A stretch of 64,000 bases of DNA from Heterobasidion occidentale. Taxonomy: Eukaryota > Basidiomycota > Agaricomycetes > Russulales > Bondarzewiaceae. Both the position numbers and the translations under genes were made by a program. Below the pieces are notes generated by a model that had not been told where the DNA came from, did no database searches, and worked only from the letters and a program-made list of their open reading frames with translations. Position 1 is the first letter of the stretch. Every line of letters begins with the position of its first letter. The stretch is from the NCBI GenBank assembly GCA_039111635.1, contig JBCAQO010000009.1, forward strand, positions 1,302,001-1,366,000. Reading direction: 5' to 3'. Below, in pieces: positions 14,478 to 42,086 of this stretch.

Positions 14478-15008
14478 TGTTGAGCGCAGTGACAATGAAG
14501 CGACTGGCACAGAGAGAGTGCCAAAAAGAAGCTCTATAATGACAGGACTGTGGTCCAGAGGGTAAGAGTCTGAAGTAGATACAAAGAACAGAAGGAAGCG
14601 CACCTGTGGTCCAGAGGGTAAGAGTCTGAAGAAAGAATTGCCCTTGGACCACGGGTATTTAAGCTACAGAGAACAATAAGAAACAAAATAGGAAGGTATG
14701 ACATCAACGAGTCACTACAGGTGGTCCACCTTGTGGAGCAGTCAACAGCTCCACCTGAAGGTCGGTCCGGAGTGTCAATGACATCACACAGGACCGCCGC
14801 CGCCAGCTAACCCGGTGAAACAACTGAAACAAAGTGAGACAAGGTGGAAACAAAGTGAGACAGTCCAAAAGGAGAAAGAAAGCAATATACCTACTCTGTG
14901 AGTGGCTGTAGGGCCACTCCCAGCTGCAGAGGTGAGTAATCAATGAGTCCCAAAGGTGGCACAAATGTAGCATGAGTGCCACATCAACCAGAACGGCCAC
15001 AAACAACA
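14478..15008 (-). repeat. 3' LTR of copia B
   Basis: 531 bp with TG...CA ends (TGTTGTTTGTGG on the minus strand at 15008, ending GCTCAACA at 14478). It matches LTRs at 41557-42086 and 46803-47333. It contains a direct internal repeat (core GGTCCAGAGGGTAAGAGTCT) at about 14551 and 14608. A short purine tract (CAGAAGGGTG) precedes it on the element strand at 15009-15018. Confidence 0.92.
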
Positions 15009-18000: not shown

Positions 18001-19283
18001 GAGAGTAGAAGCGGCACCAGCAGACTGCAAAACAACGGTGGAGGTGGTCCCTTGGAGATAAGCGTTGTTGGAACCATCAGGAACGACCGCCATAAACCAC
18101 ACTGCACCGTCCCGGGAGAAATACATCGAAGATCCTTCCATTAGCACAGAGAAGTGCTTGTGCTGAGTCAAATACAGCACAGACAGGAGATTACAGCCAA
18201 GATCAGGGACATGCAGGACGTTTGAGAACTCCACAGACTGCGCCCTCTTGCCTCCAATGACCGGATTGAACACCACAGTTCCAACACCAGCAGAGTAGAT
18301 GACAGACGAGTCTGCAAGACAAATGGGGACGACGAAGGGACGATAGTTGTGAAGCCAGTGGCGATGGGGTGTCATATGAGAGGTCGCACCTGTGTCCACG
18401 TTCCAATCAAGGTCAGTGACGAGTGAGGGGGCTGTGGACAAAGGGAATGGAGCAGGGGAACGGAAACTTGCATTGCCTGCAAACTGCATCGGACCAGAGG
18501 CTTCAGGGGCCTGAACCGAGTGGGCCTGCTGTGGCTTGGACTTCTTCAGCTCTTCATTGATCCTCTTGAAGCACCTGTCATCAGTGTGGCCAGTGGCACC
18601 GCAGAACTCGCACTTGTACTGCTTCCTGGGTGGCCTAGAACGTCTGTAGGAGGTGGAGGAAGAGGAGGAGGATGAAGGAAAGGATGCCACAAGGGCCTGT
18701 GCAGAGTCTGTGGCATCAGATCAACGTGCACAATTCAAATCCTCGCGCCTGAACGCGTCCTTGAGCTTGGAGCGAGACAAGACGTCCATGAGACTGAGGG
18801 AGGAGCGGAAGGTGTCAAACTCGGAGGGGAGAGACCACAAGAGCGCCATGCAAGTCAGCTCCTTGTCCTGCTTCTTGAGATCAAAGCCAGAGCTGCGAAG
18901 GTTCCTCAGGATGCGCATAGACTTGTCCACACGATGAATGAGGGACTGGAGGGACTCATCGTTGCGCTTCTTGATTGAAAAGAGGTCCTCCATCGCGTTG
19001 AAACGCAATCCAGCAGACTTCTTGTTGAACTGCTTCTCCAATGTGGTCCAAATTGTGATGAGGTTGTCCTCAATGCCATCCAAGACACCTCTGAACTGCT
19101 CCTCAACTGAAAGTAAGAGCGCACCAGCAGCCTTCTGAGCATTCCTCTTCCACTCTGCCACCTCCCTTGCCTCAGCAGGCTTCTCCTTTGTGCCAACAGA
19201 GGCTGTCTCATCACCAGAGACCAGAAGCCACAGGCCTTTGAGATGAAGCCAGGCCTTGATCTCCTTGGACCAGGAAGGATAGT
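15052..19283 (-). pseudogene. gag-pol: copia B gag-pol polyprotein, main segment
   Basis: One minus-strand frame carries the whole polyprotein from gag residue about 20 to the end, broken only by two stops: TGA near 18721 (from CGA) and TAG at 15340-15342 (probably from TGG). Domains in order: UBN2-like gag (18721-19278), CCHC knuckle (CEFCGATGHTDDRC, near 18600), protease (WNVDTGATSHM, near 18390), integrase zinc site and core (HSDLHGP, then LQNDKEGEY where SDNGGEY is usual, then QQNGVAERANRT), RT with FVDD (near 16010), and RNase H (SFCDADHAGN, near 15510). The remaining 57 nt of gag, including ATG, lie at 41306-41362 beyond the Gy2 insertion. The altered integrase aspartate region (N-D-K-E-G) may also reduce activity. 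Confidence 0.93.
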
Positions 19284-19918
19284 TGTTACGAACTGCTCGT
19301 TCGATAACCCAAGAGTAACAGGTTCTTCCCTAAGTCGCACGATGGACTGAGTGGTGAGGACGGTCTCGACTGTATCAAGCAATGATACAGGAAGAATTTA
19401 ATGATTATTCTACCGTAGGAAGACGGTAGGGAACGAAGGTGTTCGTATAGGAAGATACGAACAAACGAAGGTTGGTATGTGAAGATACCAAAGAACGAAA
19501 GAGAATAGACTGAAGATCCTCAGCCTATTCTATGGGCCTTATATACTGTATAGGGTCTAGGGTAAGAGTCCGTATGCTTCTCCGGGTATCCATTCCAGGA
19601 GAGCTGTGGTCGCCGTCTTTCTCAGCCAGCGCCTACTCTTGTACTTCTCCAGTCGCACCTATCCATCCTGGTGCGACGAGGTGCTTACCCATAAGCCTTA
19701 AGCCCATGGCATGTGAATGCCTGTCTTATCAATCCGCTGCATCATTTACCCTTCCCATATATCCTATACCGATGTCTTGAAGAACCATCGGTACGGCCGG
19801 ACCATAAGGACATGCCGAATACCTTGGTGTACGCTCCGTAGTGGAGCCGCCTAGCATGTGATGCTTGATCCATCGGATAGACCAGCCCCGACGGGCTCCG
19901 ATCGGTCAAGTCATAACA
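19284..19918 (-). repeat. 3' LTR of Gy2
   Basis: 635 bp, TGTTATGACTTG at 19918 to GTTCGTAACA at 19284 on the minus strand. It is preceded on the element strand by the polypurine tract at 19919-19935. It carries the same TATA box (19537-19545) and start-site motif (19502-19511) as the 5' LTR. Confidence 0.95.
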
Positions 19919-19935
19919 TTACCCCCTTTCTAGGT
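19919..19935 (-). other. Gy2 polypurine tract
   Basis: On the minus strand the sequence just before the 3' LTR reads CCTAGAAAGGGGGTAA, a purine run of the kind that primes plus-strand DNA synthesis. The decayed Gy2 copy has GGAAGGGGATAT at the same place (3163-3175). Confidence 0.75.
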
Positions 19936-21133
19936 CCCAACTCCTGAGGGGACTACTCGCCTCCGCGAGCCTCATCATCTTTCCGCCAGCAATTTGTTTC
20001 TTGACCCATAAAACCAGATGCAACTTCTGGTATGACTTCGTTTTCTGGGGCGAAGACCGACCTACGTCATTTACAACGCCTAGGAGTTTTCCATCTCCGT
20101 TGAGCTGTTTGATTTGAAGTCCTGCGGTATCGCCACAATACCGTGTTTCTCCCCGGTGTTCTTCCTTCACCGTCACATTTTGATGCGAGGCAATCCCTTG
20201 AGTCAAAAGGCGACTCCTCGAAGCAGGACTCCCTGCTTATGGTCAAAGAAAGTGATGGTGCGAATGATTTATGGATGAGTTAGAAACTCGTCTGTGGATG
20301 GGTGTGTGTCGTTCTTCTTTCAAAATGCCGAAGGCCATGCTTCAGTGTTTCCAGGATAGACCTTTATCTCTGTGATCTCCGGTATCGAGGGGGACTCCAG
20401 GTGTGTGGGTTGATCGCTTTACTAAGGCTTAGGCCCACCAACCTATCAAGAGTAGACAGCTCTTGACTTGTTTTGAGTCCGGCAAGACCCCTTTGAAGAT
20501 CCCTAACTCTGTCAGCCCCATACGGTGGCCCGTCCTGGTTAGAGATTGGTGTTCGTCCAGAGTTTGTTTGTCACATGGGAGCGAGCATGCAGCCGCACTC
20601 CGTGTATTGAACACGAGGTAAGGATTTTGAAGAATAGACTTTGAACCCCATGGCTTCTTGAGTAAACCATGGTATCCACCTTGACGGTAATTATTTGGGG
20701 TCAGCGTAAGGTATGTCCTGGTAGTTTAACGTCGTGCCGGACGTCCGTAGTTTTGCGTCTTTGCAGACGTACTCTAGTTTATCCTTAAGTCTTCACGGAA
20801 TGAGGCTAGTTTATACATAAGTCGTTGCGGACTGCCCTGCTAGTTTACGCCAAGGTCGTTGCGGACCTATCCATCTTCCGACGTAGGAGTACCCGTAAAC
20901 AAGATGGAAGACCTTTTCTGCGTGCCGGAACATTCATTGGTGATGCGCATAGAGTCCTAGACCAAGTACAGCCGTCTTGACAGGGTTCCTACTGAGGCAA
21001 GATGGTGACGGTTTATACTATATCAAACCGTATAACTTATAGAGTTGCGAGAATAGACTTGAGAGCCTATTTTGACGCAACTCACATGGCCCTGTGAATG
21101 AAGGGCTGCTCAGTTTATCGTCATGAAGGACGG
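19936..21133 (-). repeat. Gy2 noncoding tail with stem-loop motifs, 3' part
   Basis: No coding frame holds up here. The plus-strand reading contains repeated units of the form AGTTTA, 1-8 bases, GTC, 6 bases, GAC, at about 20722, 20748, 20775, 20807, 20841 and 21111. The unit at 20722 can form a perfect 5-bp stem (20729-20733 with 20740-20744). The units continue beyond the Gy1 insertion at 32306-33480. Confidence 0.72.
21130..21133. other. Gy1 target duplication, left copy (ACGG)
   Basis: ACGG flanks Gy1 on the left and again at 32306-32309. The fifth base differs (G before the left copy, A at the LTR end on the right), so the duplication is four bases, or five with one change. Confidence 0.65.
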
Positions 21134-21731
21134 TGATGAGCATGCACCCGCGCTAGGGTCCGAGGGAGGTATTTGGGAAGCTTTGGGGAGATACCGAACA
21201 GCGCTAGACGAATACCGAAGACGCCGACTCGCACCGAACACGGTCGGTCCCTACCCGACCGACCGCAAGCCACCAAAGGACGTTCGGCAGCACTTGGGTC
21301 AGTTCGCTTACACTTCACATACTTACCATAACCGCACAGGAGTGTTACAATAGGTGTTTACGAGATCGGAGCCAGTATTCCGGGTCGGCCGATGTGCTCC
21401 GTGAGTCGGTCGCTCCTTATCGCTTATCTTCCCGACTTCCACATGGTCGGTCAAAGGTGATCTTGCACCATTACTTGGCCACCCTGGTCGTACGTTACTT
21501 CCTTCCTATTTTCATTGGTTCTCCAACGCCTGTTCCTGCTACCTACGCTCGGGCGACGGATCCCGAACGGTCGGGATTTCGCCATCGCTGATTAACTTTT
21601 ACCTTATCACCTTCGGAACCCATATGGACATCTCACCTACCTTCTTATCTTCTCTGTTCGCTAGGGCTTGGCGCCCAGTCGACATCTACTCTCATTTCTT
21701 GTTCAATATCTTACTTAGGGGCTCTGTTTAC

Positions 21732-21738
21732 TATAAAA
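21732..21738 (+). promoter_or_regulatory. Gy1 LTR TATA box
   Basis: TATAAAA, also at 31825-31831 in the 3' LTR and recognisable in the decayed copies. Transcription would start about 30 bp downstream, near 21762-21770, defining the start of R. Confidence 0.55.
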
Positions 21739-22002
21739 ACCTACATACAACTCTGGAATAAACCAGCTTTCGCACCCCACAGTTCAGAGCTCATTCGCAC
21801 TCGTCTCAACCATCAAAATCGTCTTCGTCGACTCCCGAAAACTTGTCATCCTCGTCGTTCGGCCTTGTTCGCGTTCGTACTCGTCTCTTCGCTCGTATCC
21901 CTCGTCCTCCCTCGTATATTGTCAGGGTCCTGTGTGGCTCTTGAAGCACGTAGTTGTCGGTCGCGACACTACTTTCTCGTTACCGACCGAATCCCCGACT
22001 TG

Positions 22003-22024
22003 ACCGACCGAACGTTCGGTCGGT
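22003..22024. promoter_or_regulatory. 22-bp perfect palindrome in the Gy1 LTR
   Basis: An 11+11 inverted repeat centred on AAC/GTT with arms built from ACCGACC and GGTCGGT. The same sequence is at 32097-32118 in the 3' LTR. Its perfect dyad suggests a dimeric protein binding site or a structured U5 RNA hairpin; no binding protein is known to me. Confidence 0.6.
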
Positions 22025-22214
22025 GTTCGACGCAGTCCCGAAACCGTTCGGGCGCTATAATCTCACACTCCTCGCTGCTTCTCAGTACGCCATCGATTTC
22101 TAAAGTCATCACTAACAATTCCTTGTGTATTAGATACTAGCTCCAGCACCCCCTGCATTAGAGGTTGTTTTGGTGTTGTGCTCGGCACTTAGAGCCACCT
22201 CTAGCATATTATTT

Positions 22215-22230
22215 TGGAGCCCACCGCGAG
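22215..22230 (+). other. Gy1 primer binding site
   Basis: TGGAGCCCACCGCGAG begins three bases after the 5' LTR. TGG complements the CCA tail of a tRNA and the following bases would pair with its acceptor and T-arm side. The tRNA is not identified. Confidence 0.65.
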
Positions 22231-22715
22231 GGGTTAGTATTCAAAATTACCTCAAGGAATCTACGTCGCTCGTCCCGACCAACAGCGGAGCGCGAAGAAC
22301 GACAAACAGTTATCGATAGCTTCAATACTCAGGAAACCTCTGCCGACCGAAGTCTGTTCGGAGACGCCGATATAGTCCCAGAACATTTATCCCACCATCA
22401 CTACCTTGATCTCGAATCCTCACCATCGCTCTCGCCGCCACCCGACTCCACTTTCTTCTTAACCCCACCTTCGTCGCCAAACCGATCGCTACTCCCGCCG
22501 ATTTCCCCCATCCTCGACCTTGCACTCTTAGAACAATCCCCCCGTCTCCTATCCCATCTCTCCACGACTCCATTTCTCCGTTAATCCCACGCAGCCCCGT
22601 CTTCTGGACGCCGACCATCCGACCGACTTCACTAGAACGCTCCTTCGAACCAGCGACTCCATCCCCGATCACCTTAGCAAATAATACCTTCTCCCCCACC
22701 TTTGACTTTCTCACT

Positions 22716-24961
22716 ATGGCAACCCCATCCATGCCCGCTCGTGGAGACCGAACGGCCCGACCTTTGACCCCCATCAACCCCGCGAACTGAGACGATATTT
22801 CTCCGATCTGGACTTCCACTTCGTTCGGTCTGCGGTAGTGGACGAACAAGAAAGGAAGAAACACGCTTGCCGATTCCTAGATGTCGACACCTGTGAGCTT
22901 TGGGAATCGCTCACCACTTTCACCGACACCACAAAGACATTCAAGGACTTCTGCGAAGAGGTCTACAGGCTGTACCCCGGATCGGAGGAAGAGCGCAAAT
23001 GGTCGGTATCGGATATGGACAAGCTAGTCGGCGAAACGAGCAGGGTTGGCATCTTGTCTCTCAGCGAGCTTGGCGACTATCATCGGCGATTCCTGGCGAT
23101 CACGGTATTCCTCCTCAGCAAGGCACGAATCTCGGTAGCCGAACAGGGACGCGCCTTCGCTAGAGGATTCCAACCGGAGCTATGGGCAAGAATCTCTCAG
23201 CGCCTACAACTCAAGTTCCCCGATCATTTCCCAGACGACCCATATAATCTCCAGGACATTCACGACGCGGCCCGATTCGTCTTGCACGGCACCACGTCCG
23301 CCTACAGCACTACCTCTACCGACATCTCTCGAGCAGCCCCCACCGCGCCGCCCACCAATGCAATCAAGGCCGAAGACCTGGCGACCATGTTCGAACGGCT
23401 CACAGACACCTTCGTCAAGGCCATTGCAGCTCAAGGGACGTCCAGGCCAGCCGATCGACCATCCCGACAACCAGGACAAGGCGGCGATAACTGCATGTTC
23501 TGCGGCAGTCCCGAACACTTCATGCGCGCCTGTCCCGAGGTCACCGAATACATTCGGATCGGCAAATGCAAGAGGAATATCGAGGGGAAGGTTGTATTGT
23601 CAAGTGGGGCATTCGTACCCAGAGAAATCACGGGTGGTAACCTGAAGGACCGAGTTGATGAGTGGCATCGCAGGAATCCAGGCCAGTTGGCGACCGGACA
23701 GATGATGTTTACGGTAAACGCGGCGCCGACTCACCCGATGACGATAGCCTCCCGTCACGATTCACCCTCATTACTGGACGTCACCCCGACTTACCAACTC
23801 ACCGATGTCCAGCGAATCGCGAGCCTCGAACGCGAACTGTTCGCGCTCCGAACGCGGGGCGCAAGGGCACGCGAAATAGCGCAGACAGGACGTTCGGCAC
23901 CTACCCCTTCACCGGTCGCCGAACGACGAGCGAGGACTGAAACTCCCGAACCCGAACCCCGACCGACCACCCCGACTCAGCGACCGCCCCCGGTACCAGC
24001 CAAGGACGATGCTCCGATCCACCCATATGCCAAAGCCCAAGACGCCACCTATGCACCGCCACACGAACGCAACATGGGAGCCCCGACAAAGATAACCTCG
24101 GCAAAGAAGGACGCTCCGGCCTACAAGACCACGGCGCCGATCTACGATGAGAAGGTAGCAGCCGAGGTCTACAACAGGGCGATGGCCACTCAGGTGACGC
24201 TTACCCAGCGCGAACTACTCTCCCTCTCCGCCGAAGTCCGTTCGCAGGTCAGGGAAGCCACGTCGGCACGCCGATCGCCTGTCAAAGACGCCAGCAATGT
24301 TCGGACCTTCTACCAAGATGCCGATCTACCCTACGCCATCGACGACCTTGAACCACCGACTCGACCGACCGTCTCCTCATTCGTCAACGTCCTGCACCAA
24401 CCGGAAACACCTCCGCCTGGCGCAATCATCATCCCCGACATGTACGAAACGTATCTGAAGAATCTACAGCCCGGTCAGGTTCCTCAGCCGTTGATAGTTG
24501 CTAAAGAATCGTCTGCCCTAAGGTCTATTGTTCCCCTCGTCGATCATCAGCAGGAAGTCGAATGCGTCATCGATCCGGGTTCACAAGTCATCGCCATGTC
24601 GGAAGGCATTTGCAACGAACTGGCGCTCATCTACAACCCCGAAATCGTCCTCAATATGCAGTCGGCGAATGGCGAAATCGACCGATCCTTGGGCCTGGCA
24701 CGCAACGTTCCGTTCCTCATCGGCGACATCACCCTGTACCTCCAAGTCCACATCATTCGGAACCCCGCCTACGACGTTCTCCTCGGTCGGCCCTTCGACA
24801 TCCTCACCGAAAGTATCGTCAAAAATTATTCAAACGAAGACCAGACGATCACCATCAGCGACCCGAACACGGGACGACGAGCCACCATTCCGACGATCAG
24901 ACGAGGACCCCCTCGAGTTCTTCACCGAAGACAAGCGGGTTTTCGCGACTCGATGAATTGA
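22716..24961 (+). pseudogene. gag: Gy1 gag and protease
   Basis: The main open frame (22838-24961) begins inside the protein. Upstream, ATG at 22716 or 22731 joins it if one base is missing in the T-run near 22768, because RELRRYFSDLDFHF continues directly into it. A helical capsid-like domain (ELWESLTTFTDTTKTF to about 23300), a CCHC knuckle (CMFCGSPEHFMRAC, 23493-23534) and a proline-rich linker follow. Then comes an aspartic protease with VIDPGSQVIAMS (near 24570) and VLLGRPFDI (near 24778). The active site reads DPGS where DSG or DTG is usual. Protease continues into pol through another frame change near 24905. Confidence 0.88.
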
Positions 24962-27900
24962 TCCGAGATCAAGGAGAAGTTGCACTGATCATTTCCACCA
25001 ATCATGATACCCCCAATTTCCCACTTATTGAAGCGTCCTCAGATTTTCATTCTCCATTTCCCTCTCGTCGCGACCTCTGTCTCAAGTACATTATGGCCTC
25101 CGATTTGGGGCCCGAAAATCATCTCAAAAACAATCTCGATTCCGATATGTCGTCCTTATTTTCCTCAGTCGTCCCCGGTTCTTTCCATTCCACTAATATC
25201 GCCGACCCGGTCGCCATCTTCGCCGCCAAGCGCAAGTACAAACCAGTTGCACAGAAAACACGACCAGTCTTGGCCGACCTCCCCGAAAAGTTCCGAATCG
25301 TTCGGAACATCCTCGGTGACCCTCTCGCTACCCTTCCGACGCTGACGCCGAACCCCCCACCATTCACACCGACCGGTAGATATACAGCCGAACGACGCGA
25401 CCTCATCGACAAAGTCCACTCGGACGACTTCCTTTGGCCGGCCGAACGACAGCTCATGCACCATTTCATGTGTCTACAAGAGATGGGATTTGCTTGGGAT
25501 GATTCGGAACGCGGACGTTTCCGCGAGGACTTCTTCCCACAGTCAATATGCCAGTAGTCGAACACAAGCCCTGGGTTCAGCGCAACATCCCGATTCCACC
25601 AGGCATCTACGACGAAGTGTGCCGACTTATCAAAACCAAGATCGCCGCTGGAGTCTATGAGCTGTCAAATTCTTCCTACCGATCGCGCTGGTTTACGGTC
25701 GTCAAGAAGACAAATAGCACCTCCACTGGCACTAAACTCCGAATCGTTCACAGCCTCGAACCCCTGAATGCAGTCACCATCCAGCATTCAGGTGTGCCCC
25801 CATATACCGATCAGATCGCTGAACAGTTTGCAGCTCGCGCTTGCGGCGGCATTCTGGATCTCTATGTCGGATACGACGAACGAGGGCTCGCCGAATCATC
25901 TCGCGACTTTACCACATTCCAGACCCCGTTCGGTGCCCACCGACTCGTCACCCTACCCATGGGATGGACAAATTCGGTCCCGATCTTCCACGACGACGTC
26001 ACCCACATCCTCCAGCCAGAGATCCCAGACACCACCATTCCTTTCATCGACGATGTCCCGATTCGGGGCCCACCGAACCGATACGAACTTCCGAACGGCG
26101 GCTTTGAGACGCACCCCAACAACTCCGGCATACGACAGTTTGTGTGGGAGCACTTTCAAGGCCTCAATCGGGTGGTTCAGCGGATGAAGTACAGCGGAGG
26201 AACATTTTCGGGACACAAGGCGACACTCTGCGCGACCAAAATCACGGTGGTCGGCCATCGCTGCACGTACGAAGGAAGATTGCCTGACGAGTCTAGGGTA
26301 GAGTCAATTATGAAGTGGGGACCTTGCCGGGATCTCTCAGATGTTCGGGCATTTTTAGGAACGATCGGTGTCGTTCGGATCTTCATTCGGAATTTTGCAC
26401 ACAGAGCGCACGCACTGACAATGTTAACGCGCAAAGATTTCCCGTTCGTGTTCGGCCCAGACCAGATAGCGGCCCAGGACGACCTCCGGTCGGCGCTTCT
26501 CGAATCGCCAGCCCTTCGGCCGATCGACTATAGTTCGGCGGCCAACGTCATCCTTGCCGTCGATACCTCACAAATCGCGGTCGGCTTCCACCTCTGTCAA
26601 TGCGCACTCGACAATCCACGGGTTCGGTACTATGCCCGATTTGGTTCCATCACCCTTAACGACCGCGAATCGCGATTCTCCCAACCCAAGCTCGAACTCT
26701 ACGGACTCTTCCGCGCCCTCCGATCGCTCAAAATGTACCTCATCGGCGTTCGGAACCTGATAGTCGAAGTAGACGCACACTACATCAAGGGCATGCTCAC
26801 TAACCCGGATCTCGAACCCAGCGCTAGCATCAATCGGTGGATCGTCTCCATCCTCACCTTCCATTTCACACTTGTCCACGTCCCCGGCACCTCCACGGCC
26901 CCGATGGTCTCTCTCGACGACCACTCACCCTCCGATCGACCCGCACCCGAAGACGACTTTGACGACTGGATCGACAATCTCTACGGCTTCCTCCATCAGA
27001 TCAACAACACGTTCCCCACCTCCATCTCAACCTCGACAACCGCCATCTTCACCTCCTCACTCATAGGCGACCTCCCGACCGATACCGAGTCCGACGACGA
27101 AGGCCCGACCATCGACTATTCAGATATCCCAAGATCGCAAAAAGCTTTGGAAGCCGAAGAACGCCTTTGGTTGGTCCGCGACTGGCACCGAACATTGGTT
27201 CGGCCCCCTTCTCTCTCCGACTCCGAATATGCGACTTTTCTGCGATATTGCACTGAGTTCTTCATCACAGCCGACAAGCTATGGAGAAAAGACTCGCACG
27301 GTCGACACAAGATCGTTGCAGCCCCCTCTAGTCGGATCACAATTCTCACTGCCACCCACGATGACGTTGCTCACAAGGGATTCTACGCCACGACCGCCTT
27401 GGTCGCCGAACGCTTCTGGTGGCCGCACATGAGGCAAGATATTTCCTGGTTTGTTCGGACATGTCACCTTTGCCAGATTCGCCAGACTCGCAACGTCCTC
27501 ATTCCCCCGACCGTCGCTACGCCTGCACCACTCTTCGCGAAGATGTATATGGACACCATGCACATGCCAACCGCCGGCGGTTCAAGTACCTCGTTCAAGG
27601 TCGCTGTTCGGTATCACACTACCCCGAATTCCGCATGCTGCGACGCGAAACAAGCTCAGCTCTTGCCGACTGGATATTCGAGGATATCCTGTGCCGGTGG
27701 GGAACACTGGTAGAGATCGTCTCCGACAATGGACCAGCATTCGTCAAGGCGCTCGACCAGCTAGCAAAGAAGTACCACGTTCGGCACATCCGCATTTCGG
27801 GCTACAATTCCCGCGCCAACGGCATCGCCGAACGACCTCACTTCGATGTTCGGCAGGCTCTGTTCAAGGCCGTGGATGGAGACCAGGCCAAGTGGAATCG

Positions 27901-28584
27901 TGCAGCTCATTTCGTATTCTGGGCTGATCGCATTACTGTTCGGCGTCGAATGGGCTGTTCCCCATATTTCGCAGCTACCGGCACCCATCCCCTCCTGCCA
28001 CTCGACATTGCCGAAGCCACCTATCTTCTACCACCACCGACCACAACCCTCAGCACCACCGACCTCATTGCTCGACGTGCCATCGCTTTGCAGAAACGCC
28101 GATCGGACCTCGCCCACCTTCGCAGCTCGGTAGTCGGCGCCCGTGTCCAGGCCGCCATCCGATTCGAACAACAGCATTCGGCCACCCTTCGCGACTTCAA
28201 TTTCCACCGAGGCTCACTCGTCCTGATGCGCAACACAGCCATAGAAAAGCGCTCAATCGGAAGATGCGACCACGGTACTTGGGACCATTGCTGGTGATTT
28301 CTAGGAACCGAGGGGGAGCGTATATTTTGGCCGAACTTGACGGATCGGTCTTTGATCGGCCAGTGGCAGCATTCCGCATTATTCCTTACTTTGCTCGCAG
28401 GTCGCTGAAGCTCGCCGACCTTGAAGCCCTCCTCGACATCTCACAAGCACGCCTTCGGGCCATGGAAGAATCCCGATCGAGCGACAACGACGCTGAAGAC
28501 GACAATGCCGACGAGGAGGATACCGACACCAGCTCCATCCGATCATCAGAAGACGACGATGTGGCTTCGGCGACTTCCGACTAG
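24905..28584 (+). pseudogene. pol: Gy1 pol: RT, RNase H, integrase
   Basis: Three overlapping frames form one polyprotein. Frame 1 (to 25557) leads into RT. Frame 2 (25548-27713) has RT with FIDDVPIRG (near 26043, the catalytic DD), RNase H (VILAVDTSQIAVGFH near 26550) and the integrase zinc site (CHLCQIR). Frame 3 (from about 27600 to 28297) has the integrase core with VSDNGPAF and GIAERPHFD. A last frame (28264-28584) continues with MRPRYLGPLLVISRN and an acidic tail ending TAG at 28584. The joins near 25545, 27600 and 28250 look like single-base indels because protein similarity runs straight across them. Confidence 0.88.
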
Positions 28585-28618
28585 ACCCACCCCCCACCCT
28601 TCGCTCTCTTCGGTCGGT

Positions 28619-28653
28619 GACTGAGGACAGTCACGATTTCAGTAGGGAGGAGG
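28619..28653 (+). repeat. Internal copy of the Gy1 polypurine-tract region
   Basis: The stretch from GACTGAGGACAGTCA through TTCAGTAGGGAGGA is repeated almost exactly at 31193-31226, just before the 3' LTR. The internal copy lies 35 bp after the pol stop and bounds the antisense-gene cassette on its left. Confidence 0.85.
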
Positions 28654-29066
28654 ATGCACAGATATACCCATTCCTTACTCCAATTCATTCGTCACAGACA
28701 AGGACTGACGCCCGATTATTTCCGCATCTCTTAGTACTTTTGCCGCCGACCGATCGCCGACCGAATAGTCGGCACTCATTTTCCCCATCACTCCTTCAAC
28801 TACCAAGTCGCATTGAAGACTTCTTCCGATTTTGCGCAAAACCATAGGGTTTTATGCCTGTGATGATCTACTGAGGCTTCCCCTAAATATCCCAATTTAT
28901 TTTCTTCATTTCTACCAAACACTTCACTTACAAATATATCTTCACACAGTCATTTCGCCAACCAACCGCCCGAACAGCGCTTCATATCTTCGCATGGTCG
29001 TTACTGTAGACTCTGGACAAGTTCTATTTTACATTTTACATTCTTCTACATTAAAAGTTCTAAAAA

Positions 29067-30760
29067 TCAGTCATCGGGCACGAAGTCACCCGACACCGAC
29101 ATTTCAGAATCATCGGCCTCCGACGAATCCTCGACCAGGACAACGTCCGAAGGCACGGAAGGACCCGACCGAGCCTCAAGGGCCTCCAACTCGACCCTCC
29201 ACATTGTAATCGACCGGGCCAAGAAGGCGCGCGATCCCTCAGCCACAGCAATCCGATATCTGATCTCAGACGCGACACCACGGGCAACGGACGGCGATAG
29301 GCGAGAAAGCTCGGGGGAAGGGGCGGCGGTAGCGGTCGGGCGAGTAGAGCGACTGGAGCGAGAGGGGACAGGAAGGTGCTGGGTGATAGTCGGAAGGCGC
29401 TTGACCGGCTTCCTGCTCCGAACGGCTGCACAATGATGAGCTCAACTATCAGGATCTCCCGACGACCACTCACCTTTTGACTGGGCGATACTCTCGCCAG
29501 CCGACCGCTCAGGGACCAGTACCTCCACCTTGCGCTTCTTCGTCGGCCGCTCATTCTCCACCGACTTCTCCCCCGACTTCGCCTTCGCCTTCGCTTTCCC
29601 CTTCTCCTTCGGCGTCCACCCAGGCTGGAAGCTACACCCCTTGCGCTCTTCGGCGCACTTAAGGCATGAGACCTGGCCCGGTCGGGTGTAGCACCGAGGG
29701 GCAACCGTGGCGAACTCGGTCGCGCACCGATGGCAAGCGTACTCGGCCTGGAAGAGGAAGTGTCAGCAAGCAACAGAGGCGGCAAAAGGGAGGGGACTTA
29801 CAAGAACGTCACCAGGCAACAGGCCCGGAGGATCCTGCAGCAGCTTCCCGGCTCCGTTCCGCTCTACAGGGGACCGAACGGTCGACATTCGGCCCGTTCC
29901 AGGACCGAGCGGGAGGACCACCCGACCTTCGGTCGGTGTTCGCTGCCGAGCGAACTCAACGATGACGGCCGGCGCGGAAGAGACGGCCCACGGCGCCGCT
30001 GCTTTCCCTTCAAATCAGCCGAAGGAGTAGGAGGGTCGGGTCCACTCTCATGCGATCCATGGCCTCCAGTCGTGGAAGCGAGGTCGGCGTCGGCAGGAAG
30101 AGGATCGAGAAGGGAGAGAGAAGCGGCGGGAGCGGGAGAGGAGGAAGGAAGAGAGGGAGAAGGCCAGCGGACTCTGCCTCCAGCACGGCCAATTGTCGGT
30201 TCCCCTCGTCCGGATCAACTGACCCACTAAACATAGCCTCCACCAAGGCCTCCTGACGCCGCTGACGATCTTCTTCAGCAAACCGATGGGCAGCGGCAGC
30301 CTGCGCCTCTCGTGCTTCATCGGCCTCACGTTCGGCAGCAGCCACCCGCGCAACCTCTTCAGCTAAAGCCTGTTGGTCGGCGGCTTGTCGTTGTTGGAGT
30401 GTCGCAAAGTGGGCCGCTCGCTGCGGCAGAATACGCGTTCCCCAGACCAGCCAGTCGTCCGTGGCCATATGATCGAGGCCACGCTCGGCCTCTGCGATCC
30501 AGGCGGCGAGTTCGGGCACGTCTTGCCCACGCGCCGAACGGTCGAAAACAGCCTGAAAAGACGTCAGCAGCCAGCAGCAACAAACGAAAAAGGCCGACTT
30601 ACCACTCGTTTGGCGAACCCCTGCGCCCAGGCCTCGTAATCCTCGTACTCGGCGGCGCCGTCGGGAAGGGAGAGCATGTACTCCCGAGCTTGGTTTTGAG
30701 GACAGAAAGGATGGAGGACATGCTGGGAAGGCCGAAAGGGTTCGGACGAGGAGATGAAGC
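29067..30760 (-). pseudogene. Spliced antisense gene with Cys6 cluster, carried by Gy1
   Basis: On the strand opposite to gag-pol, four exons join with consensus splice sites: introns at 30553-30602, 29748-29801 and 29426-29473 (50, 54 and 48 nt; donors GTAAGT, GTAAGT, GTGAGT). The protein has an acidic region (SLPDGAAEYEDYEAWAQGF), a long coiled coil (from AVFDRSARGQDV through QQRQAADQQALAEEVARV, near 30280-30550) and a serine/proline-rich linker. Then come six cysteines spaced C-x2-C-x10-C-x8-C-x2-C-x6-C (29630-29735), a basic TKKRKV motif like the SV40 nuclear signal (near 29525), and an acidic C-terminus ending TGA at 29067. Two frame changes (near 30150 and 30010) break it, and the start is unresolved. 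A nuclear nucleic-acid-binding or regulatory role is inference. A TATA-like AAAATATAT lies near 31025 on this strand. Confidence 0.72.
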
Positions 30761-31192
30761 GGCAGGAGTGGCGATGAGTGACTTAGTCGCTGGAGAATCA
30801 ACGATCGGCAGGTGATTATGGTCACCTGACAAAGCCCCGTGCCACTGCGCTCGGCACAGACCGCGATACGCGCCACCGGCTCTTTGCCGACACGCTCTCA
30901 CACCAGCGTCCAGTTGGGCACTCTAGGTCTCAGCCACTTCCTCACCTAATCAGTTGCCACGCACAGGACCTTGCCGACTCAGCCCCGGTCTCTCTTGCAC
31001 GCCGACCCGGTCCTTTCTACGATATATTTTGCCGATTATTCACCACAGCCACATCTCCCACGCCTCCGCTCCATTTTCCACGCCACAGCTATTCTTTCAC
31101 GCCATCGCTTGTTGCCGACTCTTTCCCACATCCACGCCTCCGCTCCATTTTCCACGCCACTTTTCCGCTCCAACTCATAGCCACCAACCACT

Positions 31193-31226
31193 GACTGAGG
31201 ACAGTCAGGATTTCAGTAGGGAGAGA
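31193..31226 (+). other. Gy1 polypurine tract next to the 3' LTR
   Basis: AGTAGGGAGAGAA directly precedes the 3' LTR at 31228. The surrounding 34 bp are a near-copy of 28619-28653. Confidence 0.75.
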
Positions 31227-31227
31227 A

Positions 31228-32305
31228 TGATGAGCATGCACCCGCGCTAGGGTCCGAGGGAGGTATTTGGGAAGCTTTGGGGAGATACCGAACAGCGCTA
31301 GACGAATACCGAAGACGCCGACTCCGCACCGAACACGGTCGGTCCCTACCCGACCGACCGCAAGCCACCAAAGACGTTCGGCAGCACTTGGGTCAGTTCG
31401 CTTACACTTCACATACTTACCATAACCGACCAGGAGTGTTACAATAGGTGTTACGAGATCGGAGCCAGTATTCCGGGTCGGCCGATGTGCTCCGTGAGTC
31501 GGTCGCTCCTTATCGCTTATCTTCCCGACTTCCACATGGTCGGTCAAAGGTTGCTCTTGCACCATTACTTGGCCACCCTGGTCGTACGTTACTTCCTTCC
31601 TATTTTCATTGGTTCCAACGCCTGTTCTGGCTAACCTACGCTCCGGGCGACGGATCCCGAACGGTCGGGATTTCGCCATCGCTGATTAACTTTTACCTTA
31701 TCACCTTCGGAACCATATGGACATCTCACCTACCTTCTTCTCTTCTCTGTTCGCTAGGGCTTGGCGCCCAGTCGACATCTACTCTCATTTCTTGTTCAAT
31801 ATCTTACTTAGGGGCTCTGTTTACTATAAAAACCTACATACAACTCTGGAATAAACCAGCTTTCGCACCCCACAGTTCAGAGCTCATTCGCACTCGTCTC
31901 AACCATCAAAATCGTCTTCGTCGACTCCCGAAAAACTTGTCATCCTCGTCGTTCGGCCTTGTTCGCGTTCGTACTCGTCTCTTCGCTCGTATCCCTCGTC
32001 CTCCCTCGTATATTGTCAGGGTCCTGTGTGGCTCTTGAAGCACGTAGTTGTCGGTCGCGACACTACTTTCTCGTTACCGACCGAATCCCCGACTTGACCG
32101 ACCGAACGTTCGGTCGGTGTTCGACGCAGTCCCGAAACCGTTCGGGCGCTATAATCTCACACTCCTCGCTGCTTCTCAGTACGCCATCGATTTCTAAAGT
32201 CATCACTAACAATTCCTTGTGTATTAGATACTAGCTCCAGCACCCCCTGCATTAGAGGTTGTTTTGGTGTTGTGCTCGGCACTTAGAGCCACCTCTAGCA
32301 TATCA
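31228..32305 (+). repeat. 3' LTR of Gy1
   Basis: 1078 bp, TGATGAGC to CATATCA, followed by the ACGG duplication at 32306-32309. It holds the TATA box (31825-31831) and the palindrome (32097-32118). Confidence 0.93.
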
Positions 32306-32309
32306 ACGG

Positions 32310-33560
32310 CAACTAGTTTATAGTCATTGCAGACGTCCGCTATCGCCTGGCTTGAACCTCCCGAGCCTCGATAGATTTAATCCTCCGGGGTGAGGGTAGT
32401 TTAAGGTCATTTTGGACTAGTTGGTGACCAAGGTCGTGGTCATCAACCACATCTCCTATACGTGAAGGAGTAAATAGTTTATCGTCATTGCGGACTAGAT
32501 CAACATTGTGGCTTCAACAACGATGTCAATCGACATCTCCTGTGCCGAAAGGAGCGGTAGTTTAACGTCTTCGCGGACGTTGGCCCTGCAAAGGAAAGGG
32601 CAATCCCAGTTTACCGTCATGGAGGACGTCCTAAACCCGAGGCACGATCCCAGTTGCCTCTTGACTGGCCCTTGAAGCGGAATCCTTGCTTCTGACTTCA
32701 AGGGTAGAATGGGCGCACCATGGAGTAGTTGTGGTCCTGTTGGATGGCTGACAACCCGCCCCATGTCCCCAAACCCCTCGCACGGAATTGAACCGTGTCG
32801 ACCCCATATTAATTTTCTGTAAGGCGTATGGAATATGGACGCCTTGACCTAGTCAGCAGGGTTCTGCAATGGTGGAGGCCCTCCCTTCCACCATCTGCCA
32901 GAATACAACCATGCTCCAAGGGTCCTCGGTAGCTTTAACGTCGTTCCGGACGGTAACTAGTTTATAGTCATTGCGGACCAAGCCTTTCGTAGTTTTACAT
33001 TGTTGCGGATGTATTTGTCCTATTTGGTTACTTAGTGGAGTGCGACCACTAAATCAACCGCATCGCAGATAGGCCCCCTAATGCGGAAAACGACCCTGTA
33101 AAACTGGAGATCCAAAGTGGGACGTCCAAGACACCTGTCAGACCTTGACAGCGAGGTAGGGTCCACCGTTCCCCAACAGTGAACATGCAACACGATTTCC
33201 CGCCAATATTCTTGCATCATTCATAGCCTCTCGGTCGCGCCACATGATCAAGAAGCCGGCATATCAGTACCAGTTATTTGTTGAATCCAAGGGACCTCCT
33301 GATGCGGAAAGGGTCCTGTAAAACTGGGGATCCAAGCGGGACACCCGATTCGCTTGTCAGAATACCTCTTGACAACGAGAGTGTGAGATGCTTGTCCTTC
33401 CAGACCGGAGGGTTGAAACGCGCATGGCCAGGTACTTCCCCTGCCTTCTTATCTTTTCACAGTTTAACGTCATGCAGGACGTTCCTTCGGTGTCCTGTGC
33501 GTGAAACCGGTACCTGTGGTGCGGAGGGTCCTTTCCTCTCCATCACCCCTTTGAGACAAG
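32310..33560 (-). repeat. Gy2 noncoding tail with stem-loop motifs, 5' part
   Basis: Continuation of the tail beyond Gy1. Motif units occur at about 32314, 32397, 32475, 32558, 32607, 32930, 32957, 32989 and 33460. The unit at 32558 forms a perfect 5-bp stem (32565-32569 with 32576-32580) around a TTCGCG loop. No protein frame is supported. The same sequence, decayed, forms 1-1381. Confidence 0.75.
32781..32845 (-). other. tRNA T-arm-like hairpin and second stem-loop in Gy2 tail
   Basis: On the minus strand CACGG-TTCAATT-CCGTG (32781-32797) has the stem size and 7-base loop of a tRNA T-arm and fits the Pol III B-box pattern GGTTCRANNCC. Just upstream on that strand is a perfect 7-bp stem (AAGGCGT with ACGCCTT, 32821-32845). 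No full tRNA fold is evident. The first hairpin survives in the decayed copy at 368-384 with one change. Confidence 0.45.
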
Positions 33561-33580: not shown

Positions 33581-34960
33581 CTAATATCCTCCGCCAATGT
33601 CCCCGAAATCTCCGTATCCCTCGTCGGGTCGGTAGTATGGGTCGGCATCGTCGTAATTCCCATTATCGACCTCATGCCATACGTCTAATTCGGCTCGGGT
33701 CCAGGCAGCAGTTCGCTGAGCTGGTCGCTGGCGGACTTGAGTTCGTCTGCCAAAGTGAGGATGCGTTCCCTCAGGTCGATTATCTCGAGGACGGTTTGGA
33801 GCCAGCGAATCTCTTGGTCGAGTTCTTCTAAGACTGTCTCGGCCAGGTTCGGGTGTCGCTCTTGTCCTCGGGTTTCCTCGTCTCTCGTTCCTCCTGTACC
33901 TTGGAGGATGCTCCTCATTGCTGCCTCCGGCGTCCTGCCCAGTGGATTGTCCTGTCGATACGGGAGGAAAGGCCTCTCGATCTCGCCGTGCCTGTCGTTG
34001 TACCGTGGTCCAGACATATTCTGTCTGGACAGCGGCGTCTTGACTGATTGGCGCTGGCACGGTCCTGCTGGCTTCATCGTCCTCAGGCTGGACGCGGAAT
34101 GGATCAATCCAAACGGGCTGGGGGTGAGGAGAGGATACTGGATCCGTGCTTGAGATGAGGGCAGGTAGGAGCTCCAGGTTGATGAAGGAGGAGAATTCGT
34201 CGGGGTGGATGAGTAGGGCGTACGCCCCATTATTTCCTCTGGCATACCAGGAGGCTGCTCGGTGATCATCGGCATAGGCCAAAAGCCTGACCTGGTCGCT
34301 TGCGTCTGCAAGGCGCCTGGGAACGTCACTGTTCTCGCTCCCTGGTTGCCCTGCGAAATAATTAGCGAGCCTCTGTAAGGCTAGCGCCGTGGCCATCTGT
34401 ATTACCGCCAAGATTGTGGTGCGCTGGAGCAGCGCATCCCCTAATCCTTCCAATTCTCGGGGGTGCAGATCTCCACCACCGACAGGGGATCCTCTGGTCC
34501 TGGCAGCCGATGCACTAGTCGCTGCTGATTCGCGTATACCTGCCTCAGTAATTGTAGGTGTTGCCAAACTTGCATGGTTTCTTTGTCCTCTGCTACTTCT
34601 CGTCTCCGGTCTTGCGTTTCCTTGAGCCAACGCTGTTGACGGTTGCGGAGGCGTTGGCTGAGAAGGTCTTCCTTCTTCTTGACGTCTCTCATCGTGCTCG
34701 TCATGAGTTCCCTCAATCCGAGATGAGGCTCGTAGTTCCGCTCGATCTTCGGTGGTGAGCGTGGGGAGACGGGTGGAGACTGGTACGGAAACTCCCTCCG
34801 AAGACGCTGGGTGGCCACCTTGGCCAGGTCGTCCAGTGTCGGGGTTGGCCACGGCCAAAATGATGTCTGGTGAGGGATTCCTTGATGGTGAAGAGGTAGT
34901 TCCTTCATAGATGAGCATAGCACGTCCTGGGGAATAATCAAGAGAGGAGTGGTCGGACAT
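33581..34960 (-). CDS. Gy2 third ORF (459 aa), unknown function
   Basis: An intact open frame on the element strand, starting 60 bp after the pol stop, in the position where some Ty3/gypsy elements carry an extra gene. No signal peptide or membrane segment is visible, so it is not envelope-like. The first 170 residues are polar and disordered (start MSDHSSLDYSPGRAMLIYEG). Residues of about 175-270 form a likely helical domain (TTILAVIQMATALALQRLAN to SSFINLELLPALIS). An arginine-rich segment follows (RRNERRGNPRTRATPE), then an acidic, tyrosine-rich end (YDDADPYYRPDEGYG). The basic stretch suggests nucleic-acid binding, but this is inference. It is the only long Gy2 frame without a stop, in contrast to gag and pol. 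Confidence 0.75.
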   Translation of the reverse strand: MSDHSSLDYSPGRAMLIYEGTTSSPSRNPSPDIILAVANPDTGRPGQGGHPASSEGVSVPVSTRLPTLTTEDRAELRASSRIEGTHDEHDERRQEEGRPSQPTPPQPSTALAQGNARPETRSSRGQRNHASLATPTITEAGIRESAATSASAARTRGSPVGGGDLHPRELEGLGDALLQRTTILAVIQMATALALQRLANYFAGQPGSENSDVPRRLADASDQVRLLAYADDHRAASWYARGNNGAYALLIHPDEFSSFINLELLPALISSTDPVSSPHPQPVWIDPFRVQPEDDEASRTVPAPISQDAAVQTEYVWTTVQRQARRDREAFPPVSTGQSTGQDAGGSNEEHPPRYRRNERRGNPRTRATPEPGRDSLRRTRPRDSLAPNRPRDNRPEGTHPHFGRRTQVRQRPAQRTAAWTRAELDVWHEVDNGNYDDADPYYRPDEGYGDFGDIGGGY

Positions 34961-40658: not shown

Positions 40659-40668
40659 AGTCTATTCT
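40659..40668 (-). other. Gy2 self-priming binding site
   Basis: On the minus strand AGAATAGACT lies two bases after the 5' LTR. Its exact complement, AGTCTATTCT, sits at the predicted 5' end of the transcript inside the LTR (40889-40898), 34 bp after a TATA box. This is the layout used by Tf1, where the 5' end of the RNA folds back as primer. Confidence 0.6.
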
Positions 40669-40670
40669 AG

Positions 40671-41305
40671 TGTTACAAACTGCTCGTTCGATAACCCAAG
40701 AGTAACAGGTTCTTCCCTAAGTCGCACGATGGACTGAGTGGTGAGGACGGTCTCGACTGTATCAAGCAATGATACAGGAAGAATTTAATGATTATTCTAC
40801 CGTAGGAAGACGGTAGGGAACGAAGGTGTTCGTATAGGAAGATACGAACAAACGAAGGTTGGTATGTGAAGATACCAAAGAACGAAAGAGAATAGACTGA
40901 AGATCCTCAGCCTATTCTATGGGCCTTATATACTGTATAGGGTCTAGGGTAAGAGTCCGTATGCTTCTCCGGGTATCCATTCCAGGAGAGCTGTGGTCGC
41001 CGTCTTTCTCAGCCAGCGCCTACTCTTGTACTTCTCCAGTCGCACCTATCCATCCTGGTGCGACGAGGTGCTTACCCATAAGCCTTAAGCCCATGGCATG
41101 TGAATGCCTGTCTTATCAATCCGCTGCATCATTTACCCTTCCCATATATCCTATACCGATGTCTTGAAGAACCATCGGTACGGCCGGACCATAAGGACAT
41201 GCCGAATACCTTGGTGTACGCTCCGTAGTGGAGCCGCCTAGCATGTGATGCTTGATCCATCGGATAGACCAGCCCCGACGGGCTCCGATCAGTCAAGTCA
41301 TAACA
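40671..41305 (-). repeat. 5' LTR of Gy2
   Basis: 635 bp, TG...CA, differing from the 3' LTR only at two CpG sites, which are TpG here on the element strand. It is followed by the duplicated target ATAGT (41306-41310). Confidence 0.95.
40889..40932 (-). promoter_or_regulatory. Gy2 promoter: TATA box and predicted start
   Basis: On the minus strand TATATAAGG (40924-40932) is followed 34 bp later by AGTCTATTCT (40889-40898), the predicted RNA 5' end. The same pair is in the 3' LTR (19537-19545 and 19502-19511) and is retained in the decayed LTR at 3176-3746. Confidence 0.55.
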
Positions 41306-41362
41306 ATAGTTGCGATTATTGAGAGGGGAAACGAAAGGGAGAGCAAATGAGGGGTCAGACAT
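41306..41362 (-). pseudogene. gag: copia B gag, first 19 codons
   Basis: ATG at 41360-41362 reads MSDPSFALPF and stays open to the Gy2 junction at 41306. Across the target duplication it continues in the same frame into 19283 and below, so Gy2 landed inside the gag coding sequence. Confidence 0.88.
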
Positions 41363-41544: not shown

Positions 41545-41556
41545 GGGCCCATAACC
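41545..41556 (-). other. copia B primer binding site (half-tRNA type)
   Basis: On the minus strand GGTTATGGGCCC begins directly after the 5' LTR. It complements the anticodon stem-loop of eukaryotic initiator methionine tRNA (GGGCCCAUAACC), the internal site used by Drosophila copia, not the 3' end of the tRNA. Confidence 0.7.
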
Positions 41557-42086
41557 TGTTGAGCGCAGTGACAATGAAGCGACTGGCACAGAGAGAGTGC
41601 CAAAAAGAAGCTCTATAACGACAGGACTGTGGTCCAGAGGGTAAGAGTCTAAGTAGATACAAAGAAGAGAAGGGAGCGCACCTGTGGTCTAGAGGGTAAG
41701 AGTCTGAGGAAATAATCGCCCTCGGAACACGGGTATTTAAGCTACAGAGAACAATAAGAAACAAAAAAAGAAGACATGATATTCACGGGTCATTACAGGT
41801 GGTCCACCTTATGGAGCGGTCAAAGGCTCCACCTGGAGGTCGGTCTGGATTGTCAATGACATCACACAGGACCGCCTCAGCCAGCTAACACGGTAAAACA
41901 ACTAAAACAAAGTGAGACAAGGTGAAAACAAAATGAGACAGTCCAAAAAGAGAAAGAAAGCAATATACCTACTCTGTGAGTGGCTGTAGGGCCACTCCCA
42001 GCTACAGAGGCGAGTAATCAATGAGTCCAAAATGTGGCACGTATGTGGCACTAATGCCACATTAACTAGAACGGCCACAAACAACA
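41557..42086 (-). repeat. 5' LTR of copia B
   Basis: 530 bp with the same ends as 14478-15008, followed by the flank GGCAG. It differs from the 3' LTR by many substitutions and a few short indels. Confidence 0.92.

What the first reader, a model, noticed from the sequence alone, without database searches (positions are those of the whole stretch)
28585..31227. Spliced antisense gene inside an LTR retrotransposon encoding a Cys6-cluster, NLS and coiled-coil protein
Seen: opposite to gag-pol, between pol and the 3' LTR of Gy1, three consensus introns of 48-54 nt join exons into one product. Its cysteines are spaced C-x2-C-x10-C-x8-C-x2-C-x6-C, close to the fungal Zn2Cys6 pattern but with a longer first loop. 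TKKRKV follows, with a coiled coil upstream and an acidic tail. Known: most gypsy elements have nothing here, while some retroviruses use antisense nuclear regulators (for example HBZ of HTLV-1). Inference: the element carries its own nuclear regulator, silencing suppressor or targeting factor.
Basis: partly seen in the sequence, partly recalled or inferred. Interest (0 to 1): 0.88.

Follow-up and report, generated by a model that had tools for sequence, protein, structure and literature searches.

The report
Swappable antisense gene inside fungal retrotransposon
A jumping element, probably of a wood-rotting fungus, carries a conserved, intron-containing gene on its opposite strand, and near-identical elements carry very different versions of it, as if the gene were a swappable part.

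Summary
The antisense gene is real. It has four exons (start 30721, stop 29067, minus strand) between pol and the 3' LTR of a Gypsy-type element (21134-32303). The window copy is frame-broken, but 10 of 23 cassette copies examined in the same genome are open end to end (494-519 aa). Splice sites, six cysteines and a basic motif are largely kept across types only 67-74% identical, with dN/dS about 0.17-0.20. Homologues were found only in Heterobasidion irregulare plus three short unnamed contigs. Pfam shows no Zn2Cys6 domain; a nuclear role is inferred from sequence.

New here: the gene behaves as an exchangeable module. Elements 97-99% identical in pol carry cassettes differing at about 30% of sites (dS 0.8-1.0 against 0.02-0.10 in pol). 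Backbone and cassette trees conflict (AU p = 3e-6). H. irregulare has the same types, and chimeras. Two copies of a hairpin-plus-polypurine motif bracket the segment.

Antisense genes at this position are known in plant Grande/RIRE2/Retand and in Botrytis Boty (brtn), so this is a new variant of a known kind. Most likely it encodes a nuclear accessory regulator, shuffled by template switching. Function and expression are untested.

The parts
21134..22209 (+). 5' LTR
   Evidence: Aligned with 31228-32303: 1065 of 1071 ungapped positions identical, 10 gap columns
22838..28584 (+). gag-pol region, in several shifted frames in this copy
   Evidence: ORFs; DUF4100, sub-threshold aspartic protease, RNase H, integrase zinc-binding and sub-threshold rve matches; no RVT_1 match listed
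28617..28652 (+). hairpin-polypurine motif, copy 1 (just after pol)
   Evidence: GTGACTG-AGGA-CAGTCAC-GATTTCAG-TAGGGAGGAG
28950..30400 (-). exchangeable cassette (approximate limits, type A versus type B)
   Evidence: Identity profile; L001 versus L006 417/1378 differences inside, 20/989 and 14/733 outside
29067..29425 (-). antisense gene exon 4, C-terminal helix and acidic tail, stop codon 29067-29069
29426..29473 (-). intron 3 (48 nt)
   Evidence: GT..AG in 20 of 23 copies; L012, L022 and L023 lack it in the alignment
29474..29747 (-). exon 3: Cys6 cluster (29634-29735) and TKKRKV (29526-29543)
   Evidence: 34 matches in own genome
29748..29801 (-). intron 2 (54 nt)
   Evidence: GT..AG in 22 of 23 copies, not in L022
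29802..30552 (-). exon 2: conserved N-terminal region, long helix (about 30229-30471), Pro/Ser linker; frame-shifted in this copy
30553..30602 (-). intron 1 (50 nt)
   Evidence: GT..AG in 23 of 23 copies; L022 has one extra base in the donor
30603..30721 (-). exon 1 with start codon at 30721; one base shorter here, in L012 and in L022 than in the other 20 copies
30809..30828 (.). dyad CAGGTGA-N6-TCACCTG upstream of the antisense start; possible regulatory site, weak evidence
   Evidence: Exact-arm scan found it in 22 of loci L001-L030; not in L013-L015 (deletion), L021, L025-L027, L030
31191..31227 (+). hairpin-polypurine motif, copy 2 (the PPT next to the 3' LTR)
   Evidence: CTGACTG-AGGA-CAGTCAG-GATTTCAG-TAGGGAGAGAA; outermost stem pair changed on both sides relative to copy 1
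31228..32303 (+). 3' LTR

Best explanation
The Gypsy-type family of this fungus, most likely a Heterobasidion, carries an accessory gene with its own introns on the strand opposite gag-pol, between pol and the 3' LTR. SHOWN by sequence: the gene is protein-coding and under purifying selection; its splice sites, six cysteines and basic motif are kept in the open copies; it exists in deeply diverged types that have moved between near-identical element backbones. INFERRED: the product enters the nucleus (KKRKV/KRRKV), folds its cysteines around metal, self-associates through the long helix, and binds nucleic acid to regulate transcription, RNA fate or silencing of the element. Types are shuffled by template switching during reverse transcription; the internal second polypurine motif may help by giving the cassette region its own plus-strand segment. 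Antisense orientation explains why the introns survive: they are not introns in the sense RNA that is copied.
For: Own-genome copies (39 DNA matches); splice sites; 10 open reading frames among 23 copies; dN 0.15-0.18, dS 0.76-1.03, omega 0.17-0.20 in 9 of 10 pairs, and 0.15 in the close pair L013-L017; third-position excess, e.g. 74/62/191 differences by codon position for L002-L007. Cassette versus backbone; pol dS 0.02-0.10 among L002, L007 and L019 against cassette dS 0.76-1.03 for the same pairs. Tree conflict: type B is not one clade on the backbone (AU p 3.3e-6) but is one clade, 100/100, on the cassette. Types and chimeras in H. irregulare proteins. Motif duplication. Long helix, residues 68-148, confident (pLDDT block means 86-93) from about residue 91. 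A more distant copy in L062 reads C-x2-C-x8-C-x9-C-x2-C-x6-C. Recombination within a retrotransposon family is documented for Onsen (PMC5668417, abstract).
Against: No transcript evidence was available. No fold or family match supports DNA binding. The nuclear signal is a motif call, and it varies (KKHKV in L048; KRRRV in P0004). 12 of 23 copies have broken frames. Some H. irregulare predicted proteins lose cysteines: one each in P0002 and P0010, more in P0012, P0014 and P0016, which lack part of the segment; copy L034 has lost three. The dyad is missing in L013-L015, whose ORFs are open. Five of ten pairs had undefined dS in the 35-residue Cys segment, so that segment alone is not a strong omega test. 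The clearest mosaic, L006, is itself truncated or rearranged upstream of integrase (L067) and has a broken antisense frame.
Confidence: 0.6

Rival explanations
1. The product serves the replication cycle in the nucleus rather than transcription: export of genomic RNA, nuclear entry of the integration complex, or choice of insertion site.
For: The same basic motif, Cys cluster and helix would fit. Precedent: CERV of C. elegans Cer1 is needed for nuclear export of genomic RNA (PMC10309623, title and start of abstract in a search listing only). The plant review suggests retroviral-accessory-like roles (PMC7264820).
Against: Nothing here distinguishes it from a transcriptional regulator. Pol is nearly identical across three types compared, so no partner change in pol follows the type.
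Confidence: 0.25
2. The antisense RNA, not the protein, is the working part: it pairs with element RNA and feeds silencing or copy-number control.
For: Antisense transcripts with such roles are discussed for other elements (PMC7264820). The gene would give RNA complementary to the 3' part of the genomic RNA.
Against: omega 0.17-0.20, exon lengths in frame in the open copies, and kept cysteines and splice sites demand a protein. Cassette types at about 70% identity would pair poorly with each other.
Confidence: 0.08
3. The cassette simply evolves faster than the backbone, without exchange.
For: A change of constraint after pol could raise divergence locally.
Against: Synonymous divergence is about 8- to 50-fold that of pol for the same three pairs. 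L006 has a type B cassette on a type A backbone. H. irregulare has chimeric proteins.
Confidence: 0.03
4. A captured host gene or passenger that happens to be conserved by recent copying.
For: No homologues outside the genus in the searches apart from three unnamed contigs, so the origin is unknown.
Against: Purifying selection between types with dS near 1; by coordinates, the 11 best cassette matches (L001-L011) each lie about 1-2 kb downstream of an integrase match; no separate host locus was recognised, though the search gives lower bounds.
Confidence: 0.04

Closest known systems
Antisense additional ORFs (aORF-3R) of plant Grande, RIRE2, Retand and PvRetro13
   Same: Position between pol and 3' LTR, antisense, in most copies, family-wide conservation, nuclear product reported for Grande GENE23 (PMC7264820, main text read; PMC11963269, abstract, discussion and passages)
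   Different: No TRP28 or SMC match in Pfam; no direct sequence comparison made. The word intron does not occur in the main text of either paper, and the parts read describe no exchange of diverged versions between near-identical backbones.
brtn antisense gene of Boty-like elements, Botrytis cinerea
   Same: Fungal Gypsy element with an additional antisense gene (Zhao et al. 2011, seen only as cited in PMC7264820, PMC8365987 and PMC4227169)
   Different: The paper itself was not read; no sequence comparison was made. Boty gag-pol carries a chromodomain (PMC4227169 passage); the Pfam scan of this element's pol pieces listed none.
HBZ/APH antisense nuclear proteins of deltaretroviruses
   Same: Antisense nuclear proteins of retroviruses (PMC11963269 passage)
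   Different: Analogy only; no similarity tested; here the start lies in an internal segment, and no LTR promoter is shown.
env swapping in endogenous retroviruses
   Same: Module downstream of pol exchanged between related backbones (PMC10536682, abstract)
   Different: The module here is antisense, has introns, and gave no envelope match.
Fungal Zn2Cys6 regulators
   Same: Six cysteines, basic motif, helix for self-association (recalled pattern)
   Different: Longer gap between second and third cysteine, order of helix and cluster reversed relative to the usual layout (recalled), no HMM match.

Membership tests
Antisense additional gene of LTR retrotransposons (aORF-3R) | Gene between pol and 3' LTR, antisense to gag-pol | tested here: met
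Antisense additional gene of LTR retrotransposons (aORF-3R) | Present in many copies with coding constraint | tested here: met
Antisense additional gene of LTR retrotransposons (aORF-3R) | Transcribed antisense from its own promoter | not testable with these tools
   No RNA data
Fungal Zn2Cys6 (Zn_clus) regulators | Match to the Zn_clus profile | tested here: not met
   No such match up to E = 1 (HMMER filters drop most weak matches)
Fungal Zn2Cys6 (Zn_clus) regulators | Cysteine spacing C-x2-C-x6-C-...-C-x2-C-x6..8-C (recalled) | tested here: not met
   Gap between second and third cysteine is x10 here, x8 in L062; the six cysteines themselves are kept in 12 of 13 exon 3 copies
Fungal Zn2Cys6 (Zn_clus) regulators | Binuclear zinc fold | tested here: inconclusive
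   Model mean pLDDT 45.0
Retand antisense proteins (TRP28) | Transposase_28 domain | tested here: not met
   Not among Pfam matches
brtn of Boty | Sequence homology to brtn | not tested
   Sequence not in hand

The most novel reading that the evidence does not exclude
A spliced antisense nuclear regulator works as an exchangeable identity module of a retrotransposon population. Balancing or frequency-dependent selection, through element-against-element repression or escape from host silencing, keeps deeply diverged types alive across species, while the duplicated hairpin-polypurine motif on both sides gives the segment its own plus-strand DNA start and so makes swapping easy.
Probability: 0.2. 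Interest if true: 0.85.

Novelty: new variant of a known kind. Interest (0 to 1): 0.62.

Why it matters
Antisense accessory genes of LTR retrotransposons are known, but their function is open (PMC7264820, PMC11963269). Here a family offers something not described in the parts of those papers that I read: several diverged, constrained types on near-identical backbones in one genome. That makes comparative tests possible: which element copies does each type act on, and what does it recognise? It would also add an unusual example of an intron-bearing gene carried stably by an RNA-copied element, and a retrotransposon counterpart of env swapping.

Tried and rejected
Structure: two AlphaFold jobs; in the full protein (mean pLDDT 44.5) only the long helix and a short helix after it are confident, and exon 3 alone is unreliable (45.0), so no fold search was run. 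Families: Pfam gave only DUF2855 at E 0.16; NCBIfam only weak matches, best E 0.015; PDB nothing usable. Rfam: no match in 21000-32400; no tRNA in the window. Homologue searches (all three allowed) reached 20 H. irregulare clusters and 3 short unnamed ENA contigs; the tool finds only relatives sharing short exact words, and it scored only the 7996 candidates sharing most words, so wider distribution is not excluded. Dyad upstream of the start: a 7-base perfect dyad in some 500 bases is not far from chance by my own estimate (no call), the scan demanded exact arms so their constancy is by construction, and it is absent in L013-L015; it is listed only as a possibility. RNA folding of the hairpin motif: z -1.66 and -0.07, so energies give little support; one stem pair changed on both sides between the two motif copies is the main hint, and L025-L027, L062 and L063 carry a mismatch in the stem. 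Distant sister family (integrase about 35%, L061): no convincing cassette homologue (best tblastn hits E 0.17 and weaker in the part of the output shown) and sequence shared with its other copies ends about 0.5 kb after pol, but its LTRs were not found, so absence of an antisense gene there is not proven. A first alignment had seven minus-strand loci in the wrong orientation; it was redone. Rows dropped: L067, the stretch upstream of L006, does not align to pol (about 50%) and was left out of the pol comparison; L012, L016, L022 and L023 were left out of the trees. In one search, L012 and L016 run into unrelated sequence on the pol side. The codon statistics were printed for 5 of the 8 open copies aligned.

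Full report
WHAT IS THERE. The window lies in an unnamed 45-Mb, 159-contig genome. An LTR element occupies 21134-32303; its LTRs agree at 1065 of 1071 ungapped positions, with 10 gap columns, so the insertion looks young. gag-pol runs on the plus strand to 28584 and is split over several frames in this copy; it is Gypsy-type by domain order (protease, RNase H, integrase; RVT_1 itself was not matched in the pieces scanned). On the minus strand, between pol and the 3' LTR, lies a four-exon gene: ATG 30721, exons 30721-30603, 30552-29802, 29747-29474 and 29425-29067, introns of 50, 54 and 48 nt with GTAAGT or GTGAGT donors. But this copy cannot make the product: exon 1 is one base short, exon 2 is shifted, and the spliced reading stops after 102 codons.

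IT IS A REAL GENE. The own genome gives 39 DNA matches. I aligned 23 of the loci. Intron 1 has GT..AG in 23 of 23, intron 2 in 22 of 23, intron 3 in 20 of 23; the three misses of intron 3 lack it in the alignment. Introns 2 and 3 differ between types in sequence and length while their splice sites stay; intron 1 is shared almost unchanged by types A and B. Ten of 23 copies are open from start to stop: L002, L007, L008, L013, L014, L015, L019 and L020 and L017 and L018 (stop seen). L016 contains a run of N; the other 12 are broken. Between representative open copies dN is 0.15-0.18 and dS 0.76-1.03, omega 0.17-0.20, in nine of ten pairs; the tenth, L013-L017, is close (dS 0.18, omega 0.15) (NG86). 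Residues 1-100 of types A and B are nearly identical (dS 0.06), because they lie outside the exchanged part. Differences concentrate at third positions, e.g. 74, 62 and 191 for L002-L007 over 487 codons. The six cysteines are present in all seven segments and in 12 of the 13 exon 3 copies; L034, a broken copy, lost three. Among H. irregulare predicted proteins P0002 and P0010 lack one each, and P0012, P0014 and P0016 lack part of the segment. A more distant copy, L062, keeps six cysteines as C-x2-C-x8-C-x9-C-x2-C-x6-C and a matching exon 2 region with stops in it, and L063 keeps exon 1 with a consensus intron at the matching place.

DISTRIBUTION. The 5.8-billion-protein search found 23 clusters at E up to 1e-3: 20 named H. 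irregulare TC 32-1 hypothetical proteins and 3 short unnamed contigs; two region searches at E up to 1 added none. The window genome is therefore probably a Heterobasidion; it was not identified directly. No domain family matched the protein convincingly.

THE GENE IS SWAPPED BETWEEN ELEMENTS. Compared with the window copy in 200-nt steps, copies of other types that are mostly 84-100% identical from the end of pol to 28,900 drop to 60-76% from about 28,900 to 30,300 (type B has one step at 86-87%, 29,700-29,900), stand at 75-84% in 30,300-30,500, and return to 84-100% at 30,500-30,700; the 5' flank and LTR stay at about 86-100%, lower for L021 (72-88%). For L001 and L006: 20 differences in 989 before, 417 in 1378 inside, 14 in 733 after, 33 in 867 in the LTR. 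For pol 25548-27410, dS is 0.02 (L002-L019), 0.09 (L002-L007) and 0.10 (L007-L019); for the antisense gene of the same pairs it is 1.03, 0.76 and 0.82. On 19 rows, the cassette tree gives each of the four types with two or more rows as one clade (100/100), while on the backbone L006 with a type B cassette falls among type A backbones (100/98) and type B as one clade is rejected, AU p 3.3e-6; holding the backbone groups together on the cassette is rejected too, p 1.9e-4 and 1.7e-70. For type CD the backbone test did not reject (p 0.26), and type A is one side of a branch there, weakly (56/92). Synonymous divergence this deep inside and this shallow outside means older ancestry of the cassette, hence exchange rather than fast evolution. 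L006 is itself truncated or rearranged upstream of integrase, so its mosaic rests on the 989 sites next to the cassette; the contrast among L002, L007 and L019 does not depend on it. I compared 11 H. irregulare proteins in blocks with types A-E: they resemble single types at about 85-100% in many blocks and are partly chimeric. P0003 is D/C-like to about residue 235 and B-like from 291; P0012 is D-like and then identical to E in its last block; P0007 and P0008 match no type closely in residues 1-175 (73-85%) and then type D (89-100%). Types thus predate the split of the two genomes, or have passed between them.

BRACKETING MOTIF. The segment TGACTG-AGGA-CAGTCA-n-GATTTCAGTAGGGA stands twice: at 28617 directly after pol and at 31191 as the polypurine tract next to the 3' LTR. 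Of loci L001-L030, 20 show both copies in the scan, 9 show one (some do not span both places, and L015 has lost copy 1) and L030 none; shortened cassettes L056 and L057 have both. In L062 the scan found copy 1, and BLAST hits link both places to the window motif. The outermost stem pair is G-C in copy 1 and C-G in copy 2, which hints that pairing matters, although folding energies are unremarkable and L025-L027, L062 and L063 carry a mismatch in a stem. An internal polypurine tract would start plus-strand DNA at the border of the cassette region; that it is used, and that this helps exchange, is inference.

HOW IT MOST LIKELY WORKS. Shown: coding, constrained, intron-bearing by layout, exchanged. 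Inferred: nuclear by its basic motif, metal-bound by its cysteines, self-associating by its helix (81 residues in the model, block pLDDT 86-93 from about residue 91 and lower before it; a single helix is not excluded), acting on nucleic acid to regulate the element. I put a transcription or silencing role ahead of a replication-cycle role; nothing here separates them. The antisense layout protects introns from loss through the RNA intermediate.

WHAT IS KNOWN. Antisense genes at this place are described in plant elements, with a nuclear product and own promoter for Grande (PMC7264820, main text read), in nearly all recent Retand clusters (PMC11963269, abstract, discussion and passages), and as brtn in Boty (seen only as cited). 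Pairwise recombination among members of a family is documented for Onsen (PMC5668417, abstract) and env swapping for retroviruses (PMC10536682, abstract). Searches aimed at a basidiomycete or spliced antisense case showed no such case in the titles and abstract starts listed; most listed papers were not opened, and only the open library is covered. I therefore class it as a new variant of a known kind, with the exchange of diverged types as the surprising part.

Noticed in passing
window 19280-19921 and 40668-41308: LTRs (638 of 642 alignment columns identical) flanking minus-strand ORFs with RT, RNase H, integrase H2C2 and a chromodomain: another Gypsy element, with the element of the finding apparently nested inside it.
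   Followed up: partly
window 33581-34960, minus strand: 459-aa ORF downstream of the pol and chromodomain ORFs of the outer element, same strand, no Pfam match up to E = 0.1: a possible additional gene of that element too.
   Followed up: no
window 30809-30828: Perfect dyad CAGGTGA-N6-TCACCTG upstream of the antisense start, with differing spacers; exact arms in 22 of loci L001-L030.
   Followed up: partly
window 1382-2085, minus strand: Stretches about 79-81% similar to the LTR of this element, perhaps a related solo LTR or older element.
   Followed up: no
window 14478-14872, 41556-41950, 46803-47197: Three copies of a roughly 400-nt repeat, unidentified.
   Followed up: no
L061 (G000:C2:1770600-1774600): Distant sister family: the search lists a 1333-aa frame at its integrase match, with one TGA inside the match; no convincing cassette homologue, and about 0.5 kb of sequence shared with its other copies after pol.
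   Followed up: partly
window 22838-24958: gag-side ORF matches DUF4100 above its cut-off (31.2 bits against 27.9).
   Followed up: no
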